A stretch of DNA of 32,841 nt from a virus. The stretch covers positions 1-32,841 of the IMG/VR virus record IMGVR_UViG_3300044618_002254; one strand, written 5' to 3'. The notes beneath the pieces are model-generated. The model was given only the letters and a program-made list of their open reading frames with translations, did no database searches and was not told the origin of the DNA. The position numbers were made by a program, and so were the translations under genes. Position 1 is the stretch's first letter. Each line of letters begins with the position of its first letter. This document shows positions 1 to 13,213 of this stretch, one piece after another.

Positions 1-366
1 ATAGTCATTGGCAATGTTGAACAATTGTGGATCTCTATCGCCACGACGTCCAAAGTGATCATACACACAATGCAGGACCTCGTGCCCAAACAAGAATTCA
101 ATCTCTTTGGGTTTGAGCATGTCTACGAAACGACTATTGTAATAAAAATTACGCCCGTCTGTGGCGGCAGTAGGACACCATTCGTCGGCATTGACCAACT
201 TCAACCGAGTGGCCAAATTACCAAAAAAGCTGGCACGGAGCAATAGGCCCACACGGGCAGTGATCAATTTTTCACGGATTTCACGATCCAATTTGGCGTC
301 AGTAGGACCACACAAGTCCTTGAACTTGTCTGATTCTTTTTTATTTGCTGTAGTGGCTGTGCTCAT
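1..366 (-). CDS. DUF2201-like putative metallopeptidase, N-terminal part
   Basis: Partial gene running off the left edge; 122 codons are visible from an ATG at 366. The readable part has a basic, charged N-terminus and, near residue 95, the motif HEVLHCVYDH, an HExxH-like zinc-protease signature typical of the putative metallopeptidase (DUF2201) domain that precedes a VWA domain in proteins paired with MoxR AAA+ ATPases. The matching MoxR gene lies at 3501-4586, so the two probably form a chaperone-like ATPase/VWA pair. Note HEVLH, not a strict HExxH with flanking ligands seen elsewhere, so protease activity is not proven. An AGGA ribosome site and a near-consensus promoter lie just upstream. 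The VWA part would be outside the window. Confidence 0.7.
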   Translation of the reverse strand, partial: MSTATTANKKESDKFKDLCGPTDAKLDREIREKLITARVGLLLRASFFGNLATRLKLVNADEWCPTAATDGRNFYYNSRFVDMLKPKEIEFLFGHEVLHCVYDHFGRRGDRDPQLFNIANDY

Positions 367-395
367 AAGTGTCCTAATTTTTTTACTATACAACT

Positions 396-452: not shown

Positions 453-1283
453 ATGAGTATATTAGCATTGAAATTTGATAGTATAAACGAAATAGTGGAA
501 ATTGAGTTAGATTCTACAGTCAATGCAGAATTTTTTAAAAATTCTCTATTGGGATTCAATAGGCCAGCAGACCAACTTTTTTATAAGAAATCTGCTGAAC
601 AAGTATTAAACGATTTTCTAAATAAAGCACATCAAGCTAAACAGTTATTTAACTTTGAGTGGGATTTAACTAACTTGACTCAAGATAATTTTAATTTGTG
701 GCATAGAGATATAGAAACATTTGATTTAAGCAAATATCCACCGTGGAGTCAGAAAAAAGGGGATTTTTTTATTGCCTTGCACACGGCTCTTCATGCCTCT
801 GAAGAAACATTAGTAAAAAATAATAATTCTTCTGTTACCAGAGAGATGATACAGATTAAGTGGTTTGCAAACAGTCTTCCTTGGCCAGAAATGCCTAAAT
901 TTAAATCAATGTTGGATATTACTGCTGGAGATATTGTTACAGATTATCCACATGTGGGTAAAACTCCGTGGTTGAGTTATTATCATAATGACCTAACAAA
1001 TTTAAAACAAAGTTGTCGATTGCCCGATGCTTGTCCTCCGGGTTTTCTTATTTGGTTAACCAATCATATAGATACAGATACAGAGACAAAGAAAAAATTA
1101 CAACTGAAACGTGAGCAACAACTTACAAATTGGTACCAACAAAATGTTAATCAACTTGAAACATTGTTTACTCAAGATCAAATGTTAGCGTATGATGGAG
1201 AATACTGCACTGGTCGAATAAAAAATATAGAACAACTACAACTTTTGCAAACATTTGATTTGACATCAGTCAGTATTGTTTAG
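453..1283 (+). CDS. Conserved phage protein of unknown function (276 aa), only plus-strand gene
   Basis: Not assigned to a named family. It is predicted soluble, has no signal peptide or membrane segment, and is more AT-rich than its neighbours. Around residues 155-175 there is a stretch resembling GDI..DYPHVGKTPW; a similar YP-x-VGK pattern is familiar from uncharacterised phage proteins, which is the only link I can offer. It is transcribed against all its neighbours and its end overlaps the end of the convergent gene at 1266-1574 by 18 bases. The ATG at 453 has no clear Shine-Dalgarno sequence and no strong sigma70 promoter is visible, so timing of expression is unclear. It could be a late-acquired moron gene. 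Confidence 0.75.
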   Translation: MSILALKFDSINEIVEIELDSTVNAEFFKNSLLGFNRPADQLFYKKSAEQVLNDFLNKAHQAKQLFNFEWDLTNLTQDNFNLWHRDIETFDLSKYPPWSQKKGDFFIALHTALHASEETLVKNNNSSVTREMIQIKWFANSLPWPEMPKFKSMLDITAGDIVTDYPHVGKTPWLSYYHNDLTNLKQSCRLPDACPPGFLIWLTNHIDTDTETKKKLQLKREQQLTNWYQQNVNQLETLFTQDQMLAYDGEYCTGRIKNIEQLQLLQTFDLTSVSIV

Positions 1284-1574
1284 ATATTTAAGTATAAACC
1301 AACTCATAGCACTTTCATTATAGAAGTCCAAGTGCACCTGCATTTCATAATGGTAGCGATGATTCCATCCGTGCGATTTCATTACTGCCCATTCTGATTC
1401 GTCGTGCGGTACAAGCCCTTTGTGATGACGGATGGTAAACCCGAGCTCACGTTTCATCCGCCAACTTACCAACATAGTACCTTTGCCATACTCACCTAAC
1501 AAGCGATGATGTAGTTCTTCAAACTCACGCACACTATGGAATATAATTAGATTCTTTTTAACGGTAGTCTTCAT
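1266..1574 (-). CDS. Small array protein 9 with C-terminal F-x-LK motif (102 aa)
   Basis: Last gene of the tandem small-gene array. The first 75 residues are basic and aromatic-rich with no family I recognise. The end carries the array signature: DFYNESAMSWFILKYL, i.e. aromatic, acidic N/E residues, then F-x-L-K and an aromatic. It has the longest tail after the motif (NNTD). Start ATG at 1574 with a weak AGGA about 6 bases upstream, 9 bases after the previous stop, so it is the only member not overlapping its upstream neighbour. It overlaps the convergent plus-strand gene by 18 bases. Confidence 0.75.
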   Translation of the reverse strand: MKTTVKKNLIIFHSVREFEELHHRLLGEYGKGTMLVSWRMKRELGFTIRHHKGLVPHDESEWAVMKSHGWNHRYHYEMQVHLDFYNESAMSWFILKYLNNTD

Positions 1575-1583
1575 TATCCTATA

Positions 1584-1808
1584 TTATGCAAACTTTAATC
1601 TAAACATTAAGGCATCCTTTTCGTTACGGAACCAATAGCAATCTTCGTGCGGCCCTTGTGTAATAACTGATGCCATGATATCAGGAAAGTCTTTCCACCA
1701 GGCTATATTCCATTCACCTATGTTGGCCAGGCACCAGGGCTCACACTCAGTGTAGTGAGTGTAGGTTTTTACTGGTATAGTTAAATGTGGATTACGGTCT
1801 ATGGCCAT
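1584..1808 (-). CDS. Small array protein 8 with C-terminal F-x-LKF motif (74 aa)
   Basis: Unknown function. The C-terminus reads FRNEKDALMFRLKFA, a clear copy of the array motif. I place the start at the ATG at 1808, which overlaps the previous stop as TAATG and follows GAGGTGG by a good spacing; a GTG nine bases upstream is possible but would sit inside that ribosome site. The ribosome site itself is made by the R-W codons (AGG TGG) of the previous gene's own motif. The N-terminal part is rich in Trp, Cys and His (ECEPWCLANIGEW), perhaps metal binding, which is inference only. Confidence 0.8.
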   Translation of the reverse strand: MAIDRNPHLTIPVKTYTHYTECEPWCLANIGEWNIAWWKDFPDIMASVITQGPHEDCYWFRNEKDALMFRLKFA

Positions 1809-2029
1809 TATGCCCACCTCAATAGAAATGACACATAATCTTGGTTATCATAAAATATAAACTTTGCCCTGTTATTATATACTTGATATCGCATACAAGT
1901 TGCATAGTCTATAAACTCTCGCTGACACCAAGCTAAAATTTCATCTAGATCAAGAAACTCCAGCGGGATATCATGTTCCCATTTACCAGATGGATAGTTG
2001 CTGTTCCAATGTCCTGGTTTAAGGCTCAT
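1808..2029 (-). CDS. Small array protein 7 with C-terminal F-x-LRW motif (73 aa)
   Basis: Unknown function. It ends YDNQDYVSFLLRWA, fitting the shared motif. The ATG at 2029 overlaps the previous stop by four bases (ATGA), implying translational coupling. The body is rich in aromatic residues (WNSNYPSGKWEH) and includes a central acidic helix-like stretch EFLDLDEILAWCQREF. The pattern EILAW or EILNW recurs in array proteins 1 and 2, so similarity may extend beyond the tail in part of the family. Confidence 0.8.
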   Translation of the reverse strand: MSLKPGHWNSNYPSGKWEHDIPLEFLDLDEILAWCQREFIDYATCMRYQVYNNRAKFIFYDNQDYVSFLLRWA

Positions 2030-2274
2030 TTAAACTTTAACCTAAACAAAGTGGCATCTGCAGGGTCGATAAAATAGAACGCACACGCTTCATCAAAGTA
2101 GGCACTGACATCTGTGGTGTCAACTAACTCTGACCATACCAAACTTAATTTATTTTCCCAACAGTATTTTTTCATAGCCCACATTCTAAACGCAGGATCG
2201 TTGATTATGACTTCGTGACATTGGTCAAGCACTTCATCTCCAGGTCTTGGAAGGGCGTAATTGTTTACGTACAT
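2026..2274 (-). CDS. Small array protein 6 with C-terminal F-x-LKF motif (82 aa)
   Basis: Unknown function. The C-terminus FIDPADATLFRLKFK is the most typical copy of the array motif (hydrophobic, DP-x-DA, then F-R-L-K-F). The start ATG at 2274 shares one base with the previous stop (TAATG), and its stop overlaps the next start (ATGA). The N-terminal half contains a predicted helix around EVLDQCHEVIINDPAFRMW. No signal peptide or membrane segment. Confidence 0.8.
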   Translation of the reverse strand: MYVNNYALPRPGDEVLDQCHEVIINDPAFRMWAMKKYCWENKLSLVWSELVDTTDVSAYFDEACAFYFIDPADATLFRLKFK

Positions 2275-2606
2275 TAGCGGCCAAACTTTAACAGGAACAC
2301 AGTGTACTTCTTTTCATCTATAACAGCATAGTCAATATTAACACCACCGGTGTAGCTATCTATTGTGAGTTTAATACCATAGTATTCACGCACATAATCG
2401 TCAAAGGTAAGAAAGCCTTGCCCAACAGGCACTGCCTCCGCCAATCGATCCCATTCCTTTTTGGCTTCATGCAGGCGAGTAAAGTTCTGAGTGTCGCCAC
2501 CTATAATGGTGTCTAGCCTGGCGGCGGTATTGGCGTAGTATTTGTCTTTACTCACCAGACCACCATTTAATTGTTTTTGCTCGTAGTTTAACCAGAGTAA
2601 ACTCAT
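2274..2606 (-). CDS. Small array protein 5 with C-terminal F-x-LKF motif (110 aa, or 93 aa from GTG)
   Basis: Unknown function. It ends VIDEKKYTVFLLKFGR, matching the array motif. Two starts are possible. The ATG at 2606 gives 110 residues but overlaps the upstream gene by 59 bases and lacks a ribosome site. A GTG at 2555 gives 93 residues and an 8-base overlap (GTGAGTAA), in line with the other junctions in the array. I give the longer form but consider the GTG at least as likely. The middle is charged and probably helical (RLHEAKKEWDRLAEAV). Confidence 0.75.
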   Translation of the reverse strand: MSLLWLNYEQKQLNGGLVSKDKYYANTAARLDTIIGGDTQNFTRLHEAKKEWDRLAEAVPVGQGFLTFDDYVREYYGIKLTIDSYTGGVNIDYAVIDEKKYTVFLLKFGR

Positions 2607-2829
2607 GTGGATTTACTGTACGATGACCATGCCAGGCTGGATGCACCTGATACACACCATTGGCATTTTCCAACCACACACGACTACTACGAGCTACAAA
2701 GTCGTCGTGTGTTTTAAAACACATCTTACCATTGTCCGCAGGACTACAATTATACATGCACCAATAGCGCCATTTATCGCCAAATATAGTGCCATCATAC
2801 TTGGGATCTATTTCGTAATAATAATTCAT
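2548..2829 (-). CDS. Small array protein 4, divergent C-terminal motif (93 aa)
   Basis: Unknown function. Start at ATG 2829, overlapping the previous stop as ATGA; a GTG nine bases upstream is less likely. The N-terminus is Tyr-rich (MNYYYEIDPKYDG). Near the end VNPHEFTLVKLRAK resembles the array motif but is shifted and followed by ten further residues (TIKWWSGE), making it the most divergent member. Its last 59 bases overlap the longer reading of the next gene; if that overlap is real the divergence may reflect dual coding. Confidence 0.7.
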   Translation of the reverse strand: MNYYYEIDPKYDGTIFGDKWRYWCMYNCSPADNGKMCFKTHDDFVARSSRVWLENANGVYQVHPAWHGHRTVNPHEFTLVKLRAKTIKWWSGE

Positions 2830-3044
2830 CGAGCCCACTTTAATTGAAAATATGTTGCCATTTGTTCGTTTTTAAATTCAAACTCTACCGTAGCCGGAGT
2901 TGTTGTCTTGTCGCCTAACCATGTATTTACTGCCGGAGTAAAACGCCAAGTGTAATCAAGGTCGCGACGCAGGCCTTGATCCGTAATTTGATCATTATAC
3001 AGGAAAGCCTCGTGGGTTGTTTTTACAACGATCTTTAACCCCAT
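2826..3044 (-). CDS. Small array protein 3 with C-terminal F-x-LKW motif (72 aa)
   Basis: Unknown function. It ends FKNEQMATYFQLKWAR, a good copy of the shared motif. The start ATG at 3044 lies inside the codons for K-W of the upstream gene, giving a 10-base overlap, so translation almost certainly depends on ribosomes finishing the previous gene. The central part (DYTWRFTPAVNTWLGDKTT) looks beta-rich. No cysteine, no membrane segment. Confidence 0.8.
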   Translation of the reverse strand: MGLKIVVKTTHEAFLYNDQITDQGLRRDLDYTWRFTPAVNTWLGDKTTTPATVEFEFKNEQMATYFQLKWAR

Positions 3045-3241
3045 TTTAACAAAAACATCATGCGATCTTGATCAGTATCAAACGTAATGGTCATACCGTA
3101 TTGATGGTCAATGCCCATGGGCAAGTGTTCAGCCATCCAGTTGAGTATTTCTCGTTCGTTTTCCATCCACCAAACATAGTTTTGAATCATAAGTCCGGTC
3201 TTGTGATGTAAATTGCATGGAACAAAACGATTACTATTCAT
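3035..3241 (-). CDS. Small array protein 2 with C-terminal F-x-LKW motif (68 aa)
   Basis: Unknown function. The C-terminus FDTDQDRMMFLLKWG is a textbook copy of the array motif. I choose the ATG at 3241, which overlaps the previous stop as ATGA and follows AGGTGG by nine bases; the GTG at 3253 would fall in that ribosome site. The middle (WWMENEREILNWMAEHLP) resembles the EILAW region of array proteins 1 and 7. The ribosome site is again formed by R-W codons of the upstream gene's motif. Confidence 0.8.
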   Translation of the reverse strand: MNSNRFVPCNLHHKTGLMIQNYVWWMENEREILNWMAEHLPMGIDHQYGMTITFDTDQDRMMFLLKWG

Positions 3242-3432
3242 TGTTGCGGCCACCTAAGCACAAAGTAAGTACGATCGGCTGGTTCTCGAATAAACAACAT
3301 CATAGCACCAGGACCAAACGAGCACGATCCCCACGCAAGAATTTCTTTGTAATGCCTAGCCCACCATCTTTCATTCAATATTACGCAAATCTCTGGCGTG
3401 TTTAAGTCATTGCAAAATTTGTAATTATACAT
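3238..3432 (-). CDS. Small array protein 1 with C-terminal F-x-LRW motif (64 aa)
   Basis: First gene of the array in transcription order. It ends IREPADRTYFVLRWPQQ, matching the shared motif (DxADxxxFxLRW). The centre reads ERWWARHYKEILAWGSCSFG. There is no clear ribosome site before the ATG at 3432. Between it and the MoxR stop at 3501 lies a GC-rich hairpin region, so expression of the array may be partly uncoupled from MoxR. Function unknown. Confidence 0.78.
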   Translation of the reverse strand: MYNYKFCNDLNTPEICVILNERWWARHYKEILAWGSCSFGPGAMMLFIREPADRTYFVLRWPQQ

Positions 3433-3500: not shown

Positions 3501-4586
3501 TTAGGCCGAAGCTTGTAGGATGTACTTACCGTAACGCTTGTGAAACTCATCAAAGTTCTTGAGTTTGGTAGGTTGGAATGGTAAGTTGTATGTGGTAAGC
3601 GCAATTCTGGCACCCATAACAACCAACTCAGTTTCAAAGTTCTTCATCATGTACCCAAAAAAGTTATCAGCCATTGCATGGAATTCTTTGTCAGCAATTT
3701 TGTTTTCTACTGCCGACTTGAGTTCATAACACATACTAATAACTAAGGAATACATAGCAGATACTTCTTTGACATTGAGCTCTTTTTCTTTGCCTGACAA
3801 GATGTCTTCGGGTTTGGGCATTTTGCCTGCAATCTTACGGTGTGCCATAAACTTGACAGCAAGTCCTTCGCCCACGGTACCAGCAATCAAGTTCATGATT
3901 GTGTCATCATCGCCTTCGTCGTCTTCTAATAGCTGACTTACAAAAGTCCACGAACGTGGAGTAGCAAAGGCACGGCTTGCGGATTTAGGATCAAACTCAT
4001 TCAAATCTTGTTTAGCGTAGGTTAAGTAACCTACCACGTCTTTGTGAATGCCGTGAATAACGGCCCACTCCTGCCATGAAGCAAAGTCTACCTTCATCTC
4101 TTGGTGAATAAAGCGATTAGCCAGCGGAGTTGGCATGCGATATGTAACACCTTTGTCGCTTTCGCGATTGCCTGCGGCAACAATAACCACATTGTCTGGC
4201 ATTTTATATTTGCCAACGCGACGGTTCAAGATCAGCTGATAGGCAGCCGCTTGTACTGATGGCGCCGCTGAATTCATTTCGTCTAAGAATAGGACTACGA
4301 TTGGATATTGACCAGCAAATTCTTCATCTGGTAAATCAATCGGTTCGGCCCAATCCATCTTGCCTAAATCTTTATTGTAAAACGGAATACCACGAATATC
4401 TGTCGGCTCCATTTGACCCAAACGAAGGTCAATCATGGCCCCACCAAGTTCGGCAGTCAAGTCAGCCACAAGCTCTGACTTACCAATACCAGGAGGACCC
4501 CAAAGAAATAGTGGGCGTTGTTTTTTGAATGCTTTGAGTAGACTCTTGCGAGCTTGCACCGAAGTGACTGTTCTTGTTTCTGACAT
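3501..4586 (-). CDS. MoxR-like AAA+ ATPase (361 aa)
   Basis: Walker A is GPPGIGKS at residues 30-37, Walker B FLDE at 100-103, and a sensor-1 Asn occurs in AAGNRE around 140, followed by the arginine-containing PLANRF. This is the MoxR branch of AAA+ proteins, which remodel partner complexes together with a VWA-domain protein, sometimes aiding metal insertion. The likely partner starts at 366 and has the DUF2201 metallopeptidase-type N-terminus. The C-terminal third is a helical lid without further motifs. Start ATG 4586, AGGA ribosome site, own TTGACC promoter at 4634-4662. In phages such pairs are seen but their target is not known. Confidence 0.9.
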   Translation of the reverse strand: MSETRTVTSVQARKSLLKAFKKQRPLFLWGPPGIGKSELVADLTAELGGAMIDLRLGQMEPTDIRGIPFYNKDLGKMDWAEPIDLPDEEFAGQYPIVVLFLDEMNSAAPSVQAAAYQLILNRRVGKYKMPDNVVIVAAGNRESDKGVTYRMPTPLANRFIHQEMKVDFASWQEWAVIHGIHKDVVGYLTYAKQDLNEFDPKSASRAFATPRSWTFVSQLLEDDEGDDDTIMNLIAGTVGEGLAVKFMAHRKIAGKMPKPEDILSGKEKELNVKEVSAMYSLVISMCYELKSAVENKIADKEFHAMADNFFGYMMKNFETELVVMGARIALTTYNLPFQPTKLKNFDEFHKRYGKYILQASA

Positions 4587-4937: not shown

Positions 4938-5672
4938 TTACGCCAACTTTGGGTCTGCTTCGCTAAATGTCAGATAAACTTTACGTAGATCTTTGCCAAC
5001 TAAACTAATAACCTCGTTTTCTACAGTGCTTCTTCTCAGGCACATGCACGAATGCACTTGCGTACCTTTTTTAAGGGTAATGTTTTCGCCAGCAATTTGC
5101 GAGTGCATGCCAACAAATACATTGTCCTCGAGCGTATCATAGTCATACACTCCGGACTTGCGTTGAAGAACACAGTTACGTCCAATCTCATTGTGGTGCC
5201 CGGTAATGGTAAACGCATAAATGTTGGTATAGTCACCAATGTTATTATACCCGGCAATGTATGTCAACGTTTCTATGAAAACACTTTTACCAATATTACA
5301 AGTTTCATGAACAAATGCACCTTTGTCAATCAAACTAATACACGGTAGGTCATGACGATCAATGATGTCTATTAGGTATAGCTTTTTATTAAAGTTTCTC
5401 TTGTGAACTTCTTTACGGTCGGGTAGGTAATTAGTAGCACAGAAAAAGTGATAATTTTCTTTGTAATGTTTTAATTTCTCAGGATCTTCAAAAGACAGTT
5501 CAGTGTCAATTACAGGAATACCTTCTAGCTCCTCGGTATTTCCATAATAGTCATTGTCAATGATTCCAGCAATTTTGATATCAAAATTTTTGCACACATC
5601 TTTGATGTAAAACAATGCAGAATTAGATCCAACTAAAATCACTGGACGTGAATTATTGTTGATCATGCTCAT
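4938..5672 (-). CDS. NeuD/PglD-like sugar O- or N-acyltransferase (244 aa)
   Basis: The N-terminal part (residues 10-60) begins PVILVGSNSALFYI and fits the Rossmann-like PglD N-terminal domain, followed by the IAGIIDND strand. From about residue 115 the sequence becomes hexapeptide repeats typical of a left-handed beta-helix (IGKSVFIE, IGDYTNIY, IGRNCVL). The catalytic-type His is probably in TGHHNEIG (159-160). Family members transfer acetyl or acyl groups to nucleotide sugars or sialic acid. The start overlaps the dioxygenase stop by ATGA, so the pair is coupled. The sugar substrate cannot be read from the sequence. Length is slightly above the family's usual 200-220. Confidence 0.8.
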   Translation of the reverse strand: MSMINNNSRPVILVGSNSALFYIKDVCKNFDIKIAGIIDNDYYGNTEELEGIPVIDTELSFEDPEKLKHYKENYHFFCATNYLPDRKEVHKRNFNKKLYLIDIIDRHDLPCISLIDKGAFVHETCNIGKSVFIETLTYIAGYNNIGDYTNIYAFTITGHHNEIGRNCVLQRKSGVYDYDTLEDNVFVGMHSQIAGENITLKKGTQVHSCMCLRRSTVENEVISLVGKDLRKVYLTFSEADPKLA

Positions 5673-6715
5673 ACGTGTTCGATGCCTTCGGTAGCAAGTT
5701 TCATGATTTCCATGCGTTCTTGACGTTGCATGTTAAATTGATCTTGATAAAACGGTGTATAGTCTGGCGCCAACTTATCATAATCAAATTGAATACGATA
5801 CCCTACACGATTTGGCAACATTCCGTCGTTTTCGATCTTGCGATTGTGCAGAGTAATACTGTTATCAAAAATTAAGATATCTTTGTTACTTTTATACCAA
5901 TGTTCGTAGGTATATTCAGTAGTCAATATCTCTGTCCAAATTTTATCATACAATTTCTTAGATTCCTCTTTGCCCATGCCCTTAAAATGATCGAAAGTTG
6001 TAGCTGGTAAATGTACTCCTTCGATGCCGCCGGGACTACGAATAATCAATGGAATTTCTCCATTGGGAATTGGGCACATGTTGTTTTTGTAAAACTGTTC
6101 TTGTTGTTCCTTGAGTACTGGATTTAAACTTCTTGGTTTATAATTATTAACAGTAACTAACTCACGCAACTCGCCACGAAAACTTTCGGTTTGTTTTTCC
6201 CACCAGTCTACAGTAGTACAAAATCCTGTACAACTACCAACCATGTCTTCCCAGCCCATAAGTGTAACACCTGGAGTAAATGCTGGATCGCTACATTCAT
6301 TGCTGTGCCACAATAACTCGCCGTTGTCAAATACACCCAATGGTTCGCCGCGCCCGTTAACTTTACCAGTAACACGAATCATGCCAGGTCTACGCTTGTC
6401 TGGTTGCCATAGTCGTCCGAGACGTAGTTCATTTTTGTCTCCGTCGTCGAGCAAGTTGTTTATGACCAACTCTTTCATAGGTCGTCCATATTTTAAATAG
6501 AAGTTCACAGGACGGCTGTATCGTGCTGTGCCCCACTGCATAAACAAGTCATAATAACTAGCGTGATCTAGCTCGTTGCCACGAATAATAGTTACTAGGC
6601 TTTCCAAATGAATCTTACCAATTGCCATCCACTCTTCGTGCGTAATATTTTTAAGATCAACGTCGTCAATAAAGACGCCGAATCGACCCAAACCGGGTAT
6701 CTTTGAAATTTTCAT
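5669..6715 (-). CDS. TauD/TfdA-family 2-oxoglutarate/Fe(II) dioxygenase-like protein (348 aa)
   Basis: The double-stranded beta-helix signatures of TauD are present: a proximal metal motif in LLWHSNEC (H137), a distal FDNSITLHNR with H290, and R303/R307 near the end for 2-oxoglutarate. The proximal motif is H-x-N (N139) where TauD has H-x-D, so one metal ligand of the facial triad is changed. This may alter or abolish hydroxylation. It is cotranscribed and coupled with the acyltransferase, suggesting both act on the same small molecule or glycan. AAGGA ribosome site and a TTGACA promoter lie upstream, with a short hairpin in the leader. Confidence 0.82.
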   Translation of the reverse strand: MKISKIPGLGRFGVFIDDVDLKNITHEEWMAIGKIHLESLVTIIRGNELDHASYYDLFMQWGTARYSRPVNFYLKYGRPMKELVINNLLDDGDKNELRLGRLWQPDKRRPGMIRVTGKVNGRGEPLGVFDNGELLWHSNECSDPAFTPGVTLMGWEDMVGSCTGFCTTVDWWEKQTESFRGELRELVTVNNYKPRSLNPVLKEQQEQFYKNNMCPIPNGEIPLIIRSPGGIEGVHLPATTFDHFKGMGKEESKKLYDKIWTEILTTEYTYEHWYKSNKDILIFDNSITLHNRKIENDGMLPNRVGYRIQFDYDKLAPDYTPFYQDQFNMQRQERMEIMKLATEGIEHV

Positions 6716-7354: not shown

Positions 7355-7428
7355 TGGTGCCCCTTAACAGAATCGAACTGCTAATCCATGATTACAAATC
7401 AAGTGTTATACCATTTAACTAAAGGGGC
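7355..7428 (-). tRNA. tRNA-Thr(TGT)
   Basis: Cloverleaf with acceptor GCCCCTT/AAGGGGC, three-pair D stem, anticodon loop TTTGTAA, T loop TTCGATT, discriminator A and encoded CCA. One mismatch in the anticodon stem. The 5' end is one base from the stop of the upstream glycosyltransferase gene. Confidence 0.88.
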
Positions 7429-7429
7429 C

Positions 7430-8038
7430 TTACACATCTATTACAAAATCAACTACTTTACGTCCGTTGTGATTATTATATATCTGGCCTAAGTGATTGC
7501 AACTTTTATCTTGCGTAACGTGTTGATCAAAATTGTACACAGCAAATTCATCATCGCACTCGCTGGCACTGACAGAAGGTTTATAAAAACAGTGTTTTTT
7601 ATACAGCTGAAAGAATCCCAATGGTCGGCCGTTTTTATATTCTTCGTTGGGAGTTTGATTTTTATAATTGCTCAAGGTGTAGTATAAATTTCTGGTTAAT
7701 AATCCATATAGTGTGTTAGGATCTAATCCCGAGGTATCAATGACAAAATCTTGACCTAGGCAGATATCACTGTCTAAAATCAAATACCATGAATCAGGCC
7801 ACAGTTTATACGCAACTTCTTGAGCAAATTTGACGGCCCCACCTTTGTCAAACACTCTGTTGTTGTTTTGGAAGTCCCAATACAATACTACAATTTTAGG
7901 ATGTGGTGCTAAAATTTGTTGAGTTGCAACATCATTCCTGTCAGTGACAACAATCCAATAATCCAAGTGTGGTAGATTGGCTTCTACAACATAAGGTAAT
8001 ATATCAGCATAGTTGGTACTGACAGTGATGCCTATCAT
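7430..8038 (-). CDS. GT-A-type glycosyltransferase-like protein (202 aa)
   Basis: Short GT-A-like fold: an N-terminal strand MIGITVSTNYADILP, a WIVVTD strand, then WYLILDSDICLG around residues 85-95 carrying the D-x-D motif used to bind the metal and nucleotide sugar. A conserved-looking acidic and aromatic C-terminal part ends with CNHLGQIYNNH. About 200 residues is small for this fold, as is common in phages. Its ATG overlaps the previous stop (ATGA). Donor and acceptor are unknown; other sugar genes in the window suggest a phage-made glycan. Confidence 0.75.
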   Translation of the reverse strand: MIGITVSTNYADILPYVVEANLPHLDYWIVVTDRNDVATQQILAPHPKIVVLYWDFQNNNRVFDKGGAVKFAQEVAYKLWPDSWYLILDSDICLGQDFVIDTSGLDPNTLYGLLTRNLYYTLSNYKNQTPNEEYKNGRPLGFFQLYKKHCFYKPSVSASECDDEFAVYNFDQHVTQDKSCNHLGQIYNNHNGRKVVDFVIDV

Positions 8039-8250
8039 TCTTCTACTACAGCTTCAACAATGGTCACTTTATTGAGCAATAAGCCTTGATGTTTGGCCAA
8101 ACTTTGGATGCGTCGTTGAATTTTAGCCTGGATTTTGGGTTTGCTTGTTTTGGCAATTAGGTCAGTGAGCTGTTTGATATTTAAACTAACAATTTTAACC
8201 ACGCCGGCTTTGGTATAGCCAGATTTTTTACGTTGTAATGCTTTTGCCAT
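8035..8250 (-). CDS. Small basic helical protein (71 aa)
   Basis: Not recognised. Very Lys/Gln-rich and predicted helical (IKQLTDLIAKTSKPKIQAKI), starting MAKALQRKKSGYTK, with a short acidic end (VEAVVEE). It could bind nucleic acid, by composition only. It has a perfect AAGGAGG ribosome site before the ATG at 8250 and is coupled to the downstream glycosyltransferase by ATGA. Confidence 0.75.
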   Translation of the reverse strand: MAKALQRKKSGYTKAGVVKIVSLNIKQLTDLIAKTSKPKIQAKIQRRIQSLAKHQGLLLNKVTIVEAVVEE

Positions 8251-8270
8251 TACGGCCTCCTTGAATAATT

Positions 8271-8426
8271 TTAACTTGGAATCATGTGTGGCAAATATGG
8301 CACAGCTCTAGGACCGTGGCGTTGTTGTAACAACATACGAGCCTCCTGAGCTGTTTCGGCACCTACTCGATCCTTGAACTCGCGTCCATTGATCTTTATA
8401 GTTGTCTCCCATAATTTCATTGCCAT
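8271..8426 (-). CDS. Small hypothetical protein (51 aa)
   Basis: Starts MAMKLWETTIKINGREF and ends PYLPHMIPS. The pattern strand-turn-strand (TTIKINGREFKDRV) followed by a helix with AETAQEARMLLQQ looks like a small alpha/beta domain. It lies between two genes with the same orientation and close spacing (13 bases from the preceding stop), which supports it although the ribosome site is poor. Function unknown. Confidence 0.65.
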   Translation of the reverse strand: MAMKLWETTIKINGREFKDRVGAETAQEARMLLQQRHGPRAVPYLPHMIPS

Positions 8427-8439
8427 TGTTGATTCTATA

Positions 8440-8601
8440 TTACTTCATTTTTAATTGTTGCTTGAATGCTTTGTTAATAGCGTGAGTGTGTTTGTTAGCA
8501 ATCATAATGCTACGGCTTGCATGTTCGCGCTTTTCACTCTTGGTCCATTGTCCTGCAATGGTACGACTTAATTCACTTGCTGATTGTTGTGGCTTTGCCA
8601 T
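8440..8601 (-). CDS. Small basic hypothetical protein (53 aa)
   Basis: Starts MAKPQQSASELSRTIAGQW and is rich in Lys, His, Gln and Ala, probably helical throughout. The ATG lies one base after the stop of the omega-like gene, which strongly suggests coupled expression from the promoter at 8851-8879. A role near RNA polymerase can be imagined from the position only. No family recognised. Confidence 0.68.
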   Translation of the reverse strand: MAKPQQSASELSRTIAGQWTKSEKREHASRSIMIANKHTHAINKAFKQQLKMK

Positions 8602-8602
8602 G

Positions 8603-8830
8603 TTATTTTACCTTTGCTAAGTAGTCGTCAAGATCAACCTGTCCTGCTTGAATTTCTTTTAGTGCGTCTACGCAGGTTACATATCGTGTGGTGTCTTCAC
8701 GATGAATACGTTTGAGCTCACGTAGACGTTGTGCGCCAATTAGGACCATGTCATAGCGTCCGCCGCCAGCTTGACGTACACATTGTTCCATATCGATTTC
8801 TGGGCCACGGCTTGCAATTCTTGGTTTCAT
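8603..8830 (-). CDS. RNA polymerase omega subunit-like protein (75 aa)
   Basis: The order of features matches bacterial RpoZ. After a short basic start, IDMEQCVRQAGGGRYDMVLIG aligns with the omega N-terminal helix and its N-R-F-D-L-V-L core. QRLRELKR follows in place of the A-R-R-A-R-Q helix, and then VDALKEIQAGQV in place of the A-L-R-E-I-x-x-G stretch. Omega binds the beta' subunit and helps its folding. A phage copy could dock on or replace the host subunit to alter promoter choice. It is the first gene after a near-perfect TTGACA/TATAAT promoter with a GGAG ribosome site, consistent with early expression. Similarity is by eye. Confidence 0.75.
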   Translation of the reverse strand: MKPRIASRGPEIDMEQCVRQAGGGRYDMVLIGAQRLRELKRIHREDTTRYVTCVDALKEIQAGQVDLDDYLAKVK

Positions 8831-8850
8831 GATATCTCCTATAAAGTGCT

Positions 8851-8879
8851 ATTATACTATAAACCGTACAGGTTGTCAA
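8851..8879 (-). promoter_or_regulatory. Sigma70-type promoter for the omega-like gene
   Basis: Minus strand TTGACA, 17 bases, TATAAT, both boxes at consensus. It probably drives the run of small genes down to the tRNA-Thr. Confidence 0.88.
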
Positions 8880-8882
8880 TGT

Positions 8883-9437
8883 TTAATAACTAACCAATCT
8901 TGGACTAAACGCAAAGGTCGCTGGATAATCGGCAATGAACGCCGCATTGTTTGGATCATTGATGTAAGCTGGATCAACCAAGGCACGAATATTCCAACCA
9001 AAGTTTAAGTACAAACATTTACCAAAAATATGCATGAATAACACATATTGAAACAATCCTTGCCCTTTAACCAAAAGGTGTCCTGGGTTTTGTTCGTTAC
9101 AGTTTAGATCACCCGACCACGACATACCCGAGGTGCCATGTAAGTACTTGACAGCAAACCCATAAAACGGGTTACGCCATAACCACTGTACCTTAGACCA
9201 CCAACATGGATTGTGCAAAGATCTAAAAGTTTGGTCACCGTCTAAGCTATTATCGGGTGTTTGGAACCAACCAAGCCAAGACCATAAACGTGGGCCCGAT
9301 TGCCATACTGTGCCATTGTTGCACCACCCCGTTTGGGTGTTATAACAAATACCAATAATGAATGCCAATGGGAATGTAAGTATTGTACCGACTAAATTGA
9401 CCGGAACCAACACTAAAAAATATAAAAAATAAACCAT
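8883..9437 (-). CDS. DUF7338-like phage membrane protein (184 aa)
   Basis: One or two hydrophobic segments fill residues 3-30 (FLYFLVLVPVNLVGTILTF), followed by a Trp-rich soluble part. The motif WFQTPDNSLDGD near residue 57 and the WLWRNPFYGF stretch are the hallmarks I associate with an uncharacterised phage and prophage family (DUF7338). Function unknown; the protein is probably anchored in the inner membrane. Its ribosome site AAGGAGG is strong but lies in the arm of a 13-base inverted repeat, so translation is probably controlled by RNA structure. It follows the phosphoesterase gene by about 50 bases. Confidence 0.78.
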   Translation of the reverse strand: MVYFLYFLVLVPVNLVGTILTFPLAFIIGICYNTQTGWCNNGTVWQSGPRLWSWLGWFQTPDNSLDGDQTFRSLHNPCWWSKVQWLWRNPFYGFAVKYLHGTSGMSWSGDLNCNEQNPGHLLVKGQGLFQYVLFMHIFGKCLYLNFGWNIRALVDPAYINDPNNAAFIADYPATFAFSPRLVSY

Positions 9438-9439
9438 GA

Positions 9440-9487
9440 AATACCTCCTTGAGCAAATATTTACTGGTATTCAGTCAAGGAGGTATT
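9440..9487 (-). promoter_or_regulatory. Hairpin sequestering the ribosome site of the DUF7338-like gene
   Basis: Perfect 13-base arms: AATACCTCCTTGA (minus strand, 9475-9487) and TCAAGGAGGTATT (9440-9452), with a 22-base loop. The downstream arm contains the AAGGAGG ribosome site two bases from the arm's end and shortly before the ATG at 9437. The upstream arm is a close copy of the 16S rRNA anti-Shine-Dalgarno. No U-tract follows, so a terminator is unlikely. Confidence 0.75.
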
Positions 9488-9490
9488 ATT

Positions 9491-10096
9491 TCACATCGCC
9501 GGTCCGTTGCCGTTGCGGAATCCAATAGTACCGCCTTCGGCTGTGATGCGTTTGAGCACATCTTCGAACAGGATAGGAGCAAAGTCTGGAATTTGCTCTA
9601 CACAAACACAGTGGTATCTTGTATCTATCTCATCTGAATACAGGGTTTCTCCAGTGCGGGCATCTATACCACGAGCTTTCATAACTCTGTTGGCGTGAGT
9701 ATGACCGTGAATGTTGACACCAAAACGACCCAGACTGGCTTCGTGTACAGGGATGTGGCTAAGAATCATTCCGTTCATCACATGGTAAGCACGAAGTTCA
9801 CGGAAGTATTTTCTGTAATCTTCATCCTTAAAGATATCGTGATTGCCACGAATCAAAACCTTGTCACCGTTTAACCGATCCATAATCGTAAGTGCTCGGC
9901 GGTTGATAACTACATCACCCAAGTGATACACTTTATCCTTGGGACCTACACGTTCGTTCCACGCTTTAACCATAGCTTCGTCCATCTTGACAGCATCATC
10001 CCATGGGCGAAGGGGCGTGCAACCATCTGCACGAGTGAAGCGGCACACACCAGCGTGACCAAAGTGCGTGTCTGATACGAGAAATACTGCTGGCAT
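9491..10096 (-). CDS. Calcineurin-like metallophosphoesterase (201 aa)
   Basis: All metal-binding blocks of the family are present in order: DTHFGH (D9, H11), GDV (D61), GNHD (N85, H86), SHIPVH (114-118) and GHTH (H132, H134). The enzyme hydrolyses phosphomonoester or phosphodiester bonds using two metals. The substrate in phages is not established; nucleotides or cyclic signals are candidates. AAGGAG ribosome site before the ATG at 10096, directly downstream of two tRNA genes and likely on their transcript. The 3' end abuts the hairpin controlling the next gene. Confidence 0.9.
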   Translation of the reverse strand: MPAVFLVSDTHFGHAGVCRFTRADGCTPLRPWDDAVKMDEAMVKAWNERVGPKDKVYHLGDVVINRRALTIMDRLNGDKVLIRGNHDIFKDEDYRKYFRELRAYHVMNGMILSHIPVHEASLGRFGVNIHGHTHANRVMKARGIDARTGETLYSDEIDTRYHCVCVEQIPDFAPILFEDVLKRITAEGGTIGFRNGNGPAM

Positions 10097-10121
10097 ATTC
10101 GACTCCTTTCTTTAATTAAAT

Positions 10122-10197
10122 TGGCGCTCCCGACCGGATTCGAACCGGTGTACTCGCCGTGAAAGGGCGATGTCCTAGGCCTCTAGACGACGGGAGC
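10122..10197 (-). tRNA. tRNA-Glu(TTC)
   Basis: Complete cloverleaf: acceptor GCTCCCG/CGGGAGC, anticodon stem TCGCC/GGCGA with loop CTTTCAC, T loop TTCGAAT, discriminator G, CCA encoded. Confidence 0.95.
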
Positions 10198-10203
10198 CTA
10201 ACC

Positions 10204-10278
10204 TGGCGGTCTCGACGAGAATCGAACTCGTCCCATCCCCGTGACAGGGGGATATTCTAACCAATAAACTACGAGACC
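10204..10278 (-). tRNA. tRNA-Asp(GTC)
   Basis: Complete cloverleaf: acceptor GGTCTCG/CGAGACC, anticodon stem TCCCC/GGGGA with loop CTGTCAC, T loop TTCGATT, discriminator G, CCA encoded. Six bases upstream of tRNA-Glu. Confidence 0.95.
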
Positions 10279-10281
10279 TTG

Positions 10282-10722
10282 CTAAAAGTCTTTCAATGGA
10301 ACTAGTCCATCTAAATCAATTTCTTCATCTAAATCTTCAATATGGCCACTGTAGTAGCCATTGTGCTCGTTGCGTACTTCAAAATCGATATATCCACGGT
10401 CTGTGCGGATAGTAAAAAATCCATCCTCTACACAATTATCAGTCCATAAGTCATCATCTTCGTTGGGTTCGTCGTCGATTGCAACCCACTCTTTTTCTTC
10501 TACAGCAGTAACAAGAGCACCACGTAGTAGGTCAAACGCATTGCCTTGGCCTACTACATCAACACCCTGGAAATGATTTATGTAAACAGTATTGCAACAA
10601 TCACCGTGAACATAGAAACCAATACGTTCGTCTTCGATGGTACGAAACACCACGCGAGTATTGTCATTGTTTAGGAAAATGCCATTGATGCGTCGACCGA
10701 CTAATTTGTTCAAAACACTCAT
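10282..10722 (-). CDS. DUF7448-like phage protein (146 aa)
   Basis: The N-terminus VGRRINGIFLNNDNTRVVF, an HGDCC stretch around residue 40 and the C-terminal pattern FFTIRTDRGYIDFEVRNEHNGYYSG match an uncharacterised phage family (DUF7448). It is very acidic in the middle (residues 83-97). No catalytic motif is evident. AAGGAG ribosome site and a TTGACA/TATACT promoter are just upstream, so it begins a transcript that then includes tRNA-Asp and tRNA-Glu and the phosphoesterase. Confidence 0.8.
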   Translation of the reverse strand: MSVLNKLVGRRINGIFLNNDNTRVVFRTIEDERIGFYVHGDCCNTVYINHFQGVDVVGQGNAFDLLRGALVTAVEEKEWVAIDDEPNEDDDLWTDNCVEDGFFTIRTDRGYIDFEVRNEHNGYYSGHIEDLDEEIDLDGLVPLKDF

Positions 10723-10752
10723 GTTATTCTCCTTTTCTTAATTTAATAAAAC

Positions 10753-10781
10753 AGTATAACAAATTGTCAATTTGTTGTCAA
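10753..10781 (-). promoter_or_regulatory. Sigma70-type promoter for the DUF7448-like gene
   Basis: Minus strand TTGACA, 17 bases, TATACT. It starts within three bases of the 3' end of the atypical tRNA at 10784-10860. Confidence 0.78.
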
Positions 10782-10783
10782 TA

Positions 10784-10860
10784 TGGTGCCCCTGGAAGGA
10801 TTCGGACCTTCATATCCTCGCTTCTTGGACGAGTGACTTTACCAGTTTGTCTACAGGGGT
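10784..10860 (-). tRNA. Atypical tRNA, anticodon uncertain
   Basis: Acceptor CCCCTG/CAGGGG plus an A-C mismatch at the first pair, D arm with a three-pair stem, T stem GAAGG/CCTTC and encoded CCA are all present. In standard geometry the anticodon stem is CTCGT/GCGAG and the loop CCAAGAA, giving AAG (Leu), but position 33 is then C instead of U and the short variable arm does not fit tRNA-Leu. A shifted loop would read CCA (Trp), yet a normal tRNA-Trp is already present. The T loop TCCGAAT is also off consensus. It may be decayed or have an unusual role. Confidence 0.6.
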
Positions 10861-10865
10861 ATTGG

Positions 10866-10984
10866 TGAACAAGTCGTTATCACTGCCACGCCCGGATATA
10901 ATTACTCGCTCGGCAAGGGTACGTCACTAGACGGTTAGGAAAGGTAACCCGTGTGCATTTAACACTGCTCAAACGACTTGTTCA
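10866..10984 (-). ncRNA. Candidate structured RNA inside the tRNA array
   Basis: A 13-base perfect stem (TGAACAAGTCGTT, minus strand 10972-10984, with 10866-10878) closes a 93-base interior. Inside, in order on the minus strand, are GTGT/ACAC with a 7-base loop, GGTTA/TAACC with a 7-base loop, CGTC/GACG with a UAGU loop, and TGCC/GGCA around a larger loop. There is no coding frame. The multi-branched shape recalls a cloverleaf but it is not a tRNA: no CCA or T loop. It may be processed out of the tRNA transcript. Confidence 0.5.
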
Positions 10985-10989
10985 TGGCT

Positions 10990-11067
10990 TGGAAGTGCGG
11001 GTCAGATTTGAACTGACGGTTTTAGGGATTTGCAGTCCCTTGCATTGGGCCACTCTGCCACCGCACT
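10990..11067 (-). tRNA. tRNA-Cys(GCA)
   Basis: Acceptor AGTGCGG/CCGCACT, anticodon stem AGGGA/TCCCT with loop CTGCAAA, T stem GTCAG/CTGAC, discriminator U as required for Cys, CCA encoded. Confidence 0.93.
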
Positions 11068-11073
11068 GTTGTT

Positions 11074-11148
11074 TGGCTACCCCCACGGTGACGATCCGCG
11101 CTCTTCGGTTTTGGAGACCGATGTTCTGCCAACATGAACTAGGGAGTA
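11074..11148 (-). tRNA. tRNA-Trp(CCA)
   Basis: Acceptor TACTCCC/GGGGGTA, anticodon stem TCGGT/ACCGA with loop CTCCAAA, discriminator G as in Trp tRNAs, CCA encoded. The T loop is ATCGTCA, which departs from the usual TTCGANT, so tertiary contacts may differ. Confidence 0.85.
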
Positions 11149-11153
11149 ATGTT

Positions 11154-11227
11154 TGGAGCGGGATAAGAGAATCGAACTCTCGTCATCAGCTTGGAAGGCT
11201 GGGGTAATACCATTATACGAATCCCGC
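11154..11227 (-). tRNA. tRNA-Gly(TCC)
   Basis: Acceptor GCGGGAT/ATCCCGC, anticodon stem CCAGC/GCTGA with loop CTTCCAA, T loop TTCGATT, discriminator U, CCA encoded. Confidence 0.93.
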
Positions 11228-11235
11228 ATGAGATT

Positions 11236-11328
11236 TGGCGGAGAGCTAGGGATTCGAACCCCAGATGGACTGTTTAGATCCATGCCCGCTTAGTAGGCGG
11301 GTGCCTTCGACCGCTCGGCCAGCTCTCC
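11236..11328 (-). tRNA. tRNA-Ser(ACT), class II
   Basis: Acceptor GGAGAGC/GCTCTCC, D arm GCCGAGCGGTCGAAGGC, anticodon stem CCCGC/GCGGG with loop CTACTAA, a long variable arm with stem ATGGA/TCCAT, discriminator G, CCA encoded. The shape is clearly tRNA-Ser, but the anticodon is ACT where bacteria and phages normally use GCT for AGY codons. Confidence 0.9.
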
Positions 11329-11336
11329 ATATTTCT

Positions 11337-11365
11337 ATTATAGTATATTGTCGACACGGTGTCAA
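11337..11365 (-). promoter_or_regulatory. Sigma70-type promoter inside the tRNA array
   Basis: Minus strand TTGACA, 17 bases, TATAAT, both boxes at consensus. It begins a tRNA transcript (Ser-ACT, Gly, Trp, Cys, structured RNA, atypical tRNA). Confidence 0.88.
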
Positions 11366-11373
11366 CTAATAAT

Positions 11374-11463
11374 TGGCGGAAGCGGTGAGATTCGAACTCA
11401 CGGACCTTTTACAGTCGACAGTTTTCAAGACTGTTGCAATCAACCGGGCTCTGCCACACTTCC
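11374..11463 (-). tRNA. tRNA-Ser(TGA), class II
   Basis: Acceptor GGAAGTG/CGCTTCC, anticodon stem ACAGT/ACTGT with loop CTTGAAA, long variable arm, T stem GTGAG/CTCAC, discriminator G, CCA encoded. Confidence 0.93.
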
Positions 11464-11472
11464 ATATTGCAT

Positions 11473-11547
11473 TGGCTCCAGAGGAAGGGATCGAACCTAC
11501 GACCAACAGATTAACAGTCTGCTGCACTACCGCTGTGCTACTCTGGA
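11473..11547 (-). tRNA. tRNA-Asn(GTT)
   Basis: Acceptor TCCAGAG/CTCTGGA, anticodon stem GCAGA/TCTGT with loop CTGTTAA, T stem with one mismatch, discriminator G, CCA encoded. Confidence 0.92.
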
Positions 11548-11548
11548 A

Positions 11549-11632
11549 TGGTGGAGAATACTGGGATCGAACCAGTCGTGCCATAGGCGGCGGATTTACA
11601 GTCCACTGCATCACCATTGATGCTTCTTCTCC
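11549..11632 (-). tRNA. tRNA-Tyr(GTA), class II
   Basis: Acceptor GGAGAA/TTCTCC with the last pair mismatched, anticodon stem GTGGA/TCCGC with loop CTGTAAA, extended variable arm with GCC/GGC stem as in bacterial Tyr, discriminator A, CCA encoded. Confidence 0.92.
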
Positions 11633-11634
11633 AA

Positions 11635-11664
11635 ATTATAGTAAAGCACACTGTCTGGAGACAA
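11635..11664 (-). promoter_or_regulatory. Weak sigma70-type promoter before tRNA-Tyr
   Basis: Minus strand TTGTCT, 18 bases, TATAAT. The -10 box lies in one arm of the 18-base inverted repeat at 11636-11708. The 5' end of tRNA-Tyr is only three bases from the -10 box, so the promoter cannot yield a full tRNA-Tyr and would serve the following tRNAs, if used at all. Confidence 0.4.
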
Positions 11665-11708
11665 TAGTCTAGGGCCCAGCTTGCCACTTTCAGTGTGCTT
11701 TACTATAA
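11636..11708. repeat. 18-base perfect inverted repeat upstream of the tRNA array
   Basis: Arms at 11636-11653 and 11691-11708 (TTATAGTAAAGCACACTG and its complement) enclose 37 bases. In RNA this is a long perfect hairpin ending three bases before tRNA-Tyr, suited to RNase III processing. Each arm also carries a TATAA element pointing outward. Confidence 0.85.
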
Positions 11709-11822
11709 CCGGATTTTTTGCACCACACAAGATGCTCCATCCTCGGTTCCGCCCATTTGCAAGATGTTTTGAGTGCCCTGCGTGGATCTCGTTTCCACCT
11801 AACACACTTACTACTTTACTGG
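11709..11822. other. Intergenic stretch, nothing recognised
   Basis: Open frames here lack ribosome sites and the longest runs into tRNA-Tyr. I see no promoter, terminator or gene beyond the inverted repeat on its left. Confidence 0.4.
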
Positions 11823-11993
11823 TTAATCTTCAATTTGATGATACGTTGTATCTCTGGCCGCAATCATTTCGGTCGCACGATCAATCTTATTTTGAAGCAA
11901 ACGTACTTTCATGTCGTTGGTCAGTACTAGATTGCTGACTTCGTATGCTTGTCGCACAATACGATCATTTAGTTTTGTATAATCTGTTTTCAT
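11823..11993 (-). CDS. Small hypothetical protein (56 aa)
   Basis: Starts MKTDYTKLNDRIVRQAYEV. It is charged and predicted helical over most of its length (MKVRLLQNKIDRATEMIAARD). A GGAAAGGA ribosome site precedes the ATG at 11993. It begins 18 bases after a strong intrinsic terminator and I see no promoter of its own, so it may depend on read-through. No family recognised. It sits at the head of the region leading to the tRNA array. Confidence 0.7.
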   Translation of the reverse strand: MKTDYTKLNDRIVRQAYEVSNLVLTNDMKVRLLQNKIDRATEMIAARDTTYHQIED

Positions 11994-12011
11994 ATATCCT
12001 TTCCTTTAAAT

Positions 12012-12046
12012 AAAAAGCCCCGGAGTGTTGAGTTCCAGGGCTTTTG
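12012..12046 (-). terminator. Intrinsic terminator
   Basis: Minus strand AAAGCCCTGGA, nine-base loop, TCCGGGGCTTT, then T residues. An 11-pair stem with one G-U pair, GC-rich centre and a proper U-tract. Confidence 0.9.
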
Positions 12047-12068
12047 AATAATAATTAAAAACTTACTG

Positions 12069-12170
12069 TTATTCAACTGCCCCCACATCTGATTCTAATC
12101 CACAACCGTTGGCCCACACCCAGATATTGCTGGATAGTGTTGCTATGAGTAGATAGTTTAAATGTTTCAT
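12069..12170 (-). CDS. Possible 33-aa secreted or membrane peptide
   Basis: MKHLNYLLIATLSSNIWVWA looks like a short signal or membrane segment, followed by NGCGLESDVGAVE with one cysteine, somewhat like a tiny lipoprotein or secreted peptide. There is no Shine-Dalgarno sequence, and the ATG at 12170 is 10 bases from the TATAAT box, so translation would be nearly leaderless. The alternative is that this is only the interior of a small RNA. I keep it at modest confidence. Confidence 0.45.
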   Translation of the reverse strand: MKHLNYLLIATLSSNIWVWANGCGLESDVGAVE

Positions 12171-12180
12171 AATAGTAAGT

Positions 12181-12209
12181 ATTATACAAGATTATTTATG
12201 ATCTGTCAA
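12181..12209 (-). promoter_or_regulatory. Consensus sigma70 promoter of the small RNA/peptide unit
   Basis: Minus strand TTGACA, 17 bases, TATAAT: both boxes and spacing at consensus. Predicted start about four bases before the ATG at 12170. Confidence 0.88.
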
Positions 12210-12244
12210 CCTTTGTTTTTGCTATTTTTATCATTTAGTCAATT

Positions 12245-12268
12245 AAAAAGGACCCTAAGGTCCTTTTT
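12245..12268 (-). terminator. Intrinsic terminator after the porin gene
   Basis: Symmetrical AAAAAGGACC, four-base loop, GGTCCTTTTT. Ten-pair stem with T runs on both strands. It ends the porin transcript 17 bases after its stop codon. Confidence 0.9.
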
Positions 12269-12285
12269 GATACATTTAAAATGAC

Positions 12286-13023: not shown

Positions 13024-13045
13024 TTGATTATTTCCTTTTAAGAAT

Positions 13046-13064: not shown

Positions 13065-13140
13065 GTGAATAATATTTAGTGGTTTTCACTGGTGGCCAGC
13101 AATTTTTGCAGACTTTCTTGGTGCTTTTTAGAATAAACGG

Positions 13141-13170: not shown

Positions 13171-13213
13171 CTGGTGGTTTCTGTTACGAGGCATTTCCTG
13201 CCCTAAGCAGTGA

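What the first reader, a model, noticed from the sequence alone, without database searches (positions are those of the whole stretch)
1266..3432. Tandem array of nine small genes sharing a C-terminal F-x-L-[KR]-[WF] motif
Nine adjacent, mostly overlapping genes of 64-110 codons have nearly unrelated bodies but end in the same pattern: a hydrophobic, D/N-P/E-x-D/E, a few residues, then F-x-L-K/R-W/F, one to three residues from the stop in most copies (for example DPADATLFRLKF, TDQDRMMFLLKW). A conserved tail on variable bodies suggests a common docking or targeting tag with diversified effectors, as in anti-host or anti-defence protein sets. I know of no description of this family.
Basis: partly seen in the sequence, partly recalled or inferred. 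Interest (0 to 1): 0.88.

Follow-up and report, generated by a model that had tools for sequence, protein, structure and literature searches.

The report
Expanded small-protein arrays in jumbo phages
Giant bacteriophages carry long runs of tiny, related but very divergent genes whose shared C-terminal end is the last piece of a common protein fold, and in many freshwater phages the DNA for that end also contains the ribosome-binding site of the next gene; the family is in no database searched here and its function is unknown.

Summary
All nine genes are on the minus strand, between the core phage genes MoxR ATPase and vWA-metallopeptidase. Seven match F-x-L-[KR]-[WF] near the stop, one ends F-I-L-K-Y, and one (2548) lacks the motif. 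The tail is not a tag on unrelated bodies. It is the C-terminal element (predicted N-capped helix) of a divergent domain with a conserved W-C helix upstream. A profile built without the tail finds 352 independent members; their next residues read F 96%, x, L 94%, K/R 89%, W/F 94%. The family is absent from Pfam, PHROGs, NCBIfam, PADLOC and PDB. It occurs as up to ~25 or more adjacent copies in metagenomic jumbo phages, and in cultured phages (36 hits in Sinorhizobium phage Phosso, 6 in Agrobacterium Atu_ph07, 4 in Pseudomonas PA5oct). The genes are under purifying selection. In the freshwater group the tail codons double as Shine-Dalgarno sites for the overlapping next gene: tail Arg is AGG in 60%, against 8% in bodies. 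Phosso conserves F-x-L-x-W without this, so the motif is protein-driven and the ribosome site is co-opted. Best reading: an expanded accessory family of small host-directed proteins on one scaffold. The biochemical function is inferred, not shown.

The parts
1..393 (-). vWA co-chaperone with N-terminal metallopeptidase domain (cut by the window end); far flank of the array
   Evidence: Pfam DUF2201_N E 2.6e-19; MoxR-vWA pair described for group 2.2 jumbo phages (PMC7824862)
1266..1574 (-). Array gene 9, last of the array; variant tail FILKYLNNTD; AlphaFold beta-beta-alpha-alpha-beta-alpha-beta-alpha with the tail as C-terminal helix; homology to the main family not shown
   Evidence: pLDDT 86; hhalign 4.6%
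1584..1808 (-). Array gene 8, tail FRLKFA; true start probably the ATG at 1808 (ORF listed from GTG at 1817)
1806..1822 (-). Junction of genes 7 and 8: TTGAGGTGGGCATAATG encodes the end LRWA-stop of gene 7 and contains a GAGGTG Shine-Dalgarno-like site 5 bases or so before the ATG of gene 8
   Evidence: sequence; codon table; codon bias
1808..2029 (-). Array gene 7, tail FLLRWA, W-C helix motif LAWCQREF
2026..2274 (-). Array gene 6, tail FRLKFK; 4-base ATGA overlap with gene 7
   Evidence: 95.8% to the family profile
2274..2606 (-). Array gene 5, tail FLLKFGR; 1-base overlap with gene 6
   Evidence: 84%
2548..2829 (-). Array gene 4, tail motif absent; true start probably the ATG at 2829 (ATGA overlap with gene 3)
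   Evidence: 8.6%, not supported as a member
2826..3044 (-). Array gene 3, tail FQLKWAR
   Evidence: 95.6%
3035..3241 (-). Array gene 2, tail FLLKWG; true start probably the ATG at 3241 (ATGA overlap; ORF listed from GTG at 3253)
3238..3432 (-). Array gene 1, tail FVLRWPQQ
3501..4586 (-). MoxR-type AAA+ ATPase, near flank of the array (94% identical to that of a 344-kb phage contig)

Best explanation
The array is one cassette of a large, previously unnamed family of small (about 60-110 aa) jumbo-phage proteins built on one divergent alpha/beta scaffold (strand, W-C helix, strands, C-terminal helix). The conserved tail (hydrophobic-x-F, then an N-cap D/N-[EP]-x-D, then F-x-L-[KR]-W) is the last strand plus closing helix of that scaffold, not a detachable tag. 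Copies are laid out as one operon with 4-base or 1-base stop/start overlaps. In the freshwater group the codons for L-[KR]-W (TTR-ARG-TGG) also form the Shine-Dalgarno site of the next gene, so each copy carries the start signal of its follower, and copies can be gained or lost without breaking expression. The products are most likely accessory, non-virion proteins, each adapted to a different host target (host takeover or counter-defence). Shown here: the family, the arrays, purifying selection, the codon bias, turnover of copies. Inferred: the fold, translation by coupling, the host-directed role.
For: Family: body-only profile selects 352 members not found through the DNA pattern, 0 of 13,236 shuffled ORFs; the residues after the profile read F 337, L 331, K/R 315, W/F 332 of 352. 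Conserved W of the W-C helix, F and L in 61 aligned members. Tail in a C-terminal helix in both models. Translated and constrained: dN/dS 0.01-0.20. Ribosome site: Arg AGG 142/236 in tails against 121/1595 in bodies; non-family ATGA-overlap genes carry AGGTGG in 2/274 against 29/96. Protein-level constraint independent of it: 25/37 tails with no detected following gene keep the motif; Phosso keeps F-x-L-x-[WF] with free codons at position 4. Turnover: 0 to 17 copies at the MoxR locus, conserved order with insertions and losses, 29-36 hits per genome elsewhere. Host-directed and non-virion: accessory distribution; three PA5oct members lack the ESI-MS/MS note that many neighbours carry.
Against: The host-directed role has no direct support; low dN/dS between orthologs does not look like an arms race. 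The model of the main family is weak (pLDDT 65) and the good model (pLDDT 86) is of gene 1266, whose homology to the family is not shown. Two of nine genes (1266, 2548) are not demonstrable members. Fisher P values ignore relatedness. AGG is also frequent in the few tails with no detected following gene (6 of 14), so the link to coupling is by codon bias and position, not by contrast between coupled and uncoupled copies.
Confidence: 0.5

Rival explanations
1. The C-terminal motif is a docking or recognition tag: variable bodies are presented to one common partner, for example the neighbouring MoxR ATPase or another AAA+ machine, as adaptors or substrates.
For: The window array lies between MoxR and its vWA partner; the motif is usually one residue from the stop (273/352); in one genome a member lies between ClpX-like and GroES-like genes and in PA5oct two lie beside ClpP.
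Against: The shared region is not only the tail; most arrays and single copies are not beside MoxR, and large neighbours are very mixed; many close relatives have MoxR-vWA with no copy between.
Confidence: 0.15
2. The tail is mainly a by-product of the DNA: a Shine-Dalgarno site needed by the overlapping next gene forces L-R-W in that frame.
For: Strong AGG and TTR codon bias in the tail; nearly every match of a 21-base junction pattern in IMG/VR closes such an ORF.
Against: Other overlapping genes in the same loci do not have it (3/274); tails without a following gene keep it (25/37); Phosso keeps F-x-L-x-W without the site; F and the D-[AY] positions lie outside the site; W is replaced by F (TTT), which serves no ribosome site.
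Confidence: 0.07
3. The family serves a role inside infection (small nucleic-acid-binding or translation-associated proteins in many flavours) rather than acting against host or defence proteins.
For: Conserved orthologs with low dN/dS; members scattered among tRNA, replication and nucleotide-metabolism genes; weak, non-significant fold resemblance to ferredoxin-like proteins.
Against: Copy number runs from 0-3 to more than 30 among phages and most ortholog groups are not universal, unlike housekeeping genes.
Confidence: 0.25

Closest known systems
Zinc-ribbon expansion of Bacillus phage G (about 35 copies; PMC7824862)
   Same: One small domain expanded to dozens of copies in one jumbo-phage genome
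   Different: Different protein family (a zinc ribbon); the cited passage mentions no tandem arrays with embedded ribosome sites
MoxR AAA+ / vWA-metallopeptidase pair of group 2.2 jumbo phages (PMC7824862)
   Same: The two genes flank the window array
   Different: The array genes are not part of that pair and mostly occur elsewhere in the genome
Translational coupling by stop/start overlap with a Shine-Dalgarno site inside the upstream gene (general bacterial and phage mechanism, from general knowledge)
   Same: ATGA and TAATG overlaps with the ribosome site in the last codons of the upstream gene
   Different: Here the site sits inside a conserved protein motif that is repeated through an array of paralogs
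Uncharacterized protein A0A6J5LH00, uncultured Caudovirales phage (BFVD)
   Same: Best structural match of gene 1266: E 2.9e-5, TM 0.60/0.80, 30% identity
   Different: Also unannotated, so it gives no function

Membership tests
The family described here (A2 profile) | Matches the profile of the shared domain | tested here: met
   Window genes 2026 and 2826 at 95-96%, not in the profile; 1584, 1808, 3035 and 3238 at 97.9-99.7% (in the profile); 2274 at 84%
The family described here (A2 profile) | Same, for genes 1266 and 2548 | tested here: not met
   hhalign 4.6% and 8.6%; 1266 has the look-alike tail FILKY, 2548 none
The family described here (A2 profile) | Common three-dimensional fold | tested here: inconclusive
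   AlphaFold pLDDT 65 for gene 1584, 86 for gene 1266; no significant PDB fold match
Any family of Pfam, PHROGs, NCBIfam, PADLOC or the PDB | Significant profile or sequence match | tested here: not met
   Only scattered single-member weak hits below curated cut-offs
AAA+ adaptors with a C-terminal docking tail (SspB-like, from memory) | Docking tail separate from the folded body | tested here: inconclusive
   Sequence and models place the tail inside the shared domain, but no coordinates or binding data
AAA+ adaptors with a C-terminal docking tail (SspB-like, from memory) | Consistent co-occurrence with one AAA+ gene | tested here: not met
   Arrays mostly away from MoxR, neighbours mixed
Phage counter-defence proteins | Blocks a host defence system | not testable with these tools
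   PADLOC-DB lists defence systems and gave no match; needs experiment

The most novel reading that the evidence does not exclude
A self-propagating cassette system: the conserved 3' end of each gene is at once the closing helix of a common scaffold and the ribosome-binding and start module of the next gene, so a member can be inserted, duplicated or swapped by recombination at these near-identical junctions and be expressed at once. Jumbo phages would use this to build arrays of dozens of diversified inhibitors aimed at different host proteins, a combinatorial effector repertoire.
Probability: 0.2. Interest if true: 0.9.

Novelty: new variant of a known kind. Interest (0 to 1): 0.66.

Why it matters
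One unnamed family accounts for up to three dozen 'hypothetical' genes per genome in several jumbo phages, including cultured ones (Phosso, with Atu_ph07 and PA5oct carrying a few), so a visible share of their dark matter may be one testable scaffold. The embedded ribosome sites offer a clean case of a protein motif and a translation signal constrained in the same codons, and a possible route for gene cassettes to spread. A phage in culture with about 36 copies makes function directly testable.

Tried and rejected
A genome-contig scan with gene 1584 found no cellular relative. A functional link to MoxR was considered and set aside because most arrays are elsewhere. A pure Shine-Dalgarno artefact was considered and rejected. 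'Unrelated bodies' was rejected for most genes after profile comparison. A resemblance I thought I recalled to a common cyanophage protein was tested and not found. Ascertainment bias: the first codon counts included ORFs picked by the AGG-containing pattern, and the correction still left some in; one search excludes them all and is the one cited. Literature searches for a description of such arrays found none; the library is open-access only.

Full report
OBSERVATION. The window is a 32.8-kb virus record. Nine ORFs fill 1266-3432 on the minus strand, between a MoxR AAA+ ATPase (3501-4586) and the start of a vWA co-chaperone with a metallopeptidase domain (1-393; Pfam DUF2201_N). Seven end in F-x-L-[KR]-[WF] within four residues of the stop; no other window ORF of at least 40 aa does. 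Gene 1266 ends in FILKY plus five residues and gene 2548 lacks the motif. For eight of the nine, the closest unsaturated orthologs give dN/dS 0.01-0.20; for 3238 only one distant homologue was found.

RELATIVES AND LOCUS. MoxR brought in 80 IMG/VR loci and gene 2026 another 14, partly the same contigs. Strict-motif ORFs in these loci lie only on the MoxR strand, none on the other. An HMM of the tail found 205 ORFs against one shuffled decoy at 8 bits, 181 of them within five residues of the C-terminus. The MoxR-vWA interval ranges from 31 to 6446 bp; where both flanks are present it holds 0-10 family ORFs, and one locus cut before vWA holds 17. A core order (labels 4-5-3-1-2-11-6) recurs with insertions and losses, and 203 members fall into 55 ortholog-level groups. 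The MoxR-vWA pair itself is described for group 2.2 jumbo phages (PMC7824862).

ONE FAMILY, NOT A TAG. An alignment of 61 members shows an invariant F, a W at 90% or more in a W-C helix some 44 residues upstream, and L at 90% or more. A model truncated before the tail, applied to 13,236 ORFs (no shuffled ORF passes), selects 352 members after removal of those found through the DNA pattern. Their following residues are F 337, L 331, K/R 315, W/F 332, and 273 have exactly one residue after W. hhalign places genes 2026 and 2826, not in the profile, at 95-96% and gene 2274 at 84%; 1266 and 2548 are unsupported. AlphaFold gives pLDDT 65 for gene 1584 and 86 for gene 1266. Both place the tail in a C-terminal helix after a strand, which fits the D/N-[EP]-x-D pattern as a helix N-cap (inference).

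A RIBOSOME SITE IN THE MOTIF. In the window, gene 1808 ends TTG AGG TGG GCA TAA (L-R-W-A-stop) and the ATG of the next gene overlaps the stop by one base (1806-1822). Across the family, tail Arg is AGG in 142/236 against 121/1595 in the bodies, and tail Leu is TTA/TTG in 246/331 against 773/1497. GAGGTG matches the anti-Shine-Dalgarno (general knowledge). Non-family genes with the same ATGA overlap show the motif in 3/274 and AGGTGG in 2/274, against 74/96 and 29/96 in the family, so overlap alone does not create the motif. Tails with no detected following gene keep it in 25/37. In Sinorhizobium phage Phosso the tails read F-[KR]-L-x-[WF], with position 4 free and only two AGG among six Arg. 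The protein constraint is therefore primary, and the Shine-Dalgarno use is an addition in the freshwater group (inference). Fisher P values ignore relatedness.

DISTRIBUTION. In the 80 loci checked, 115 of 120 matches close an ORF scoring at least 10 bits on the family model (part of that score comes from the pattern itself) and 109 are followed by an ORF of at least 40 aa. Whole records hold 21 hits in 344 kb, 29 in 374 kb, 30 in 364 kb and 33 in 240 kb, with arrays of about 25 genes in 10 kb (L259) and about 25 in 8 kb (L261) that are not beside MoxR. Cultured carriers are Phosso (36), Atu_ph07 (6) and PA5oct (4); SCTP-2, S-TIM5 and RaK2 had none. In the stretches read, their genes are annotated 'hypothetical protein', and three PA5oct genes lack the ESI-MS/MS note that many other genes carry. 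No cellular relative was found with gene 1584.

FUNCTION. Nothing here shows the biochemical role. Variable copy number, many non-universal groups, arrays in changing contexts and no mass-spectrometry note in PA5oct favour accessory host-directed proteins. Low dN/dS between orthologs and scattering among metabolic genes leave room for an internal role. A docking tag to MoxR is unlikely because most arrays are elsewhere.

NOVELTY. No Pfam, PHROGs, NCBIfam, PADLOC or PDB-sequence family matches convincingly. The closest structural match is an uncharacterized uncultured-phage protein. Expansions of one small domain in a jumbo phage are known (zinc ribbons in phage G, PMC7824862). The family itself, its array form and the ribosome site within the conserved motif appear undescribed in the library searched.

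Noticed in passing
window 453-1283 (+): A lone 276-aa ORF on the opposite strand between the end of the array and the vWA gene, overlapping gene 1266 by 18 bases; no Pfam or PHROGs match.
   Followed up: partly
window 12286-13194 (-): A bacterial Gcw_chp-type (putative porin) outer-membrane protein gene (Pfam E 9.6e-49) inside a phage contig, next to a tRNA cluster.
   Followed up: partly
window 21455-22369, 25132-25683, 25914-26717, 31255-32841 (-): By eye, QueE-, QueD- and FolE-like genes and a large ORF that may be a tRNA-guanine-transglycosylase relative: possible 7-deazaguanine DNA modification. The large ORF had no Pfam match.
   Followed up: no
window 5669-6715, 4938-5672, 23342-24280, 26788-28316, 28313-29602 (-): Sugar and surface-type genes: TauD-family dioxygenase, hexapeptide transferase, two epimerase-like ORFs, DegT-type aminotransferase fragment, glycosyltransferase.
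   Followed up: partly
window 7355-14734 (-): Eleven tRNA genes and a GIY-YIG (SegE-like) endonuclease at 13471-14232.
   Followed up: partly
L122:1418-5743 (G001): By eye, ClpX-, GroES-, GroEL- and Hsp20-like genes in a row, with one family member (2833-3072) between the ClpX- and GroES-like genes.
   Followed up: no
L200:1602-2357 and relatives: A roughly 250-aa conserved ORF (YGCEFCKREF...) is the commonest large neighbour of the arrays found through the junction pattern (18 of 149 flanking ORFs); no Pfam match.
   Followed up: partly
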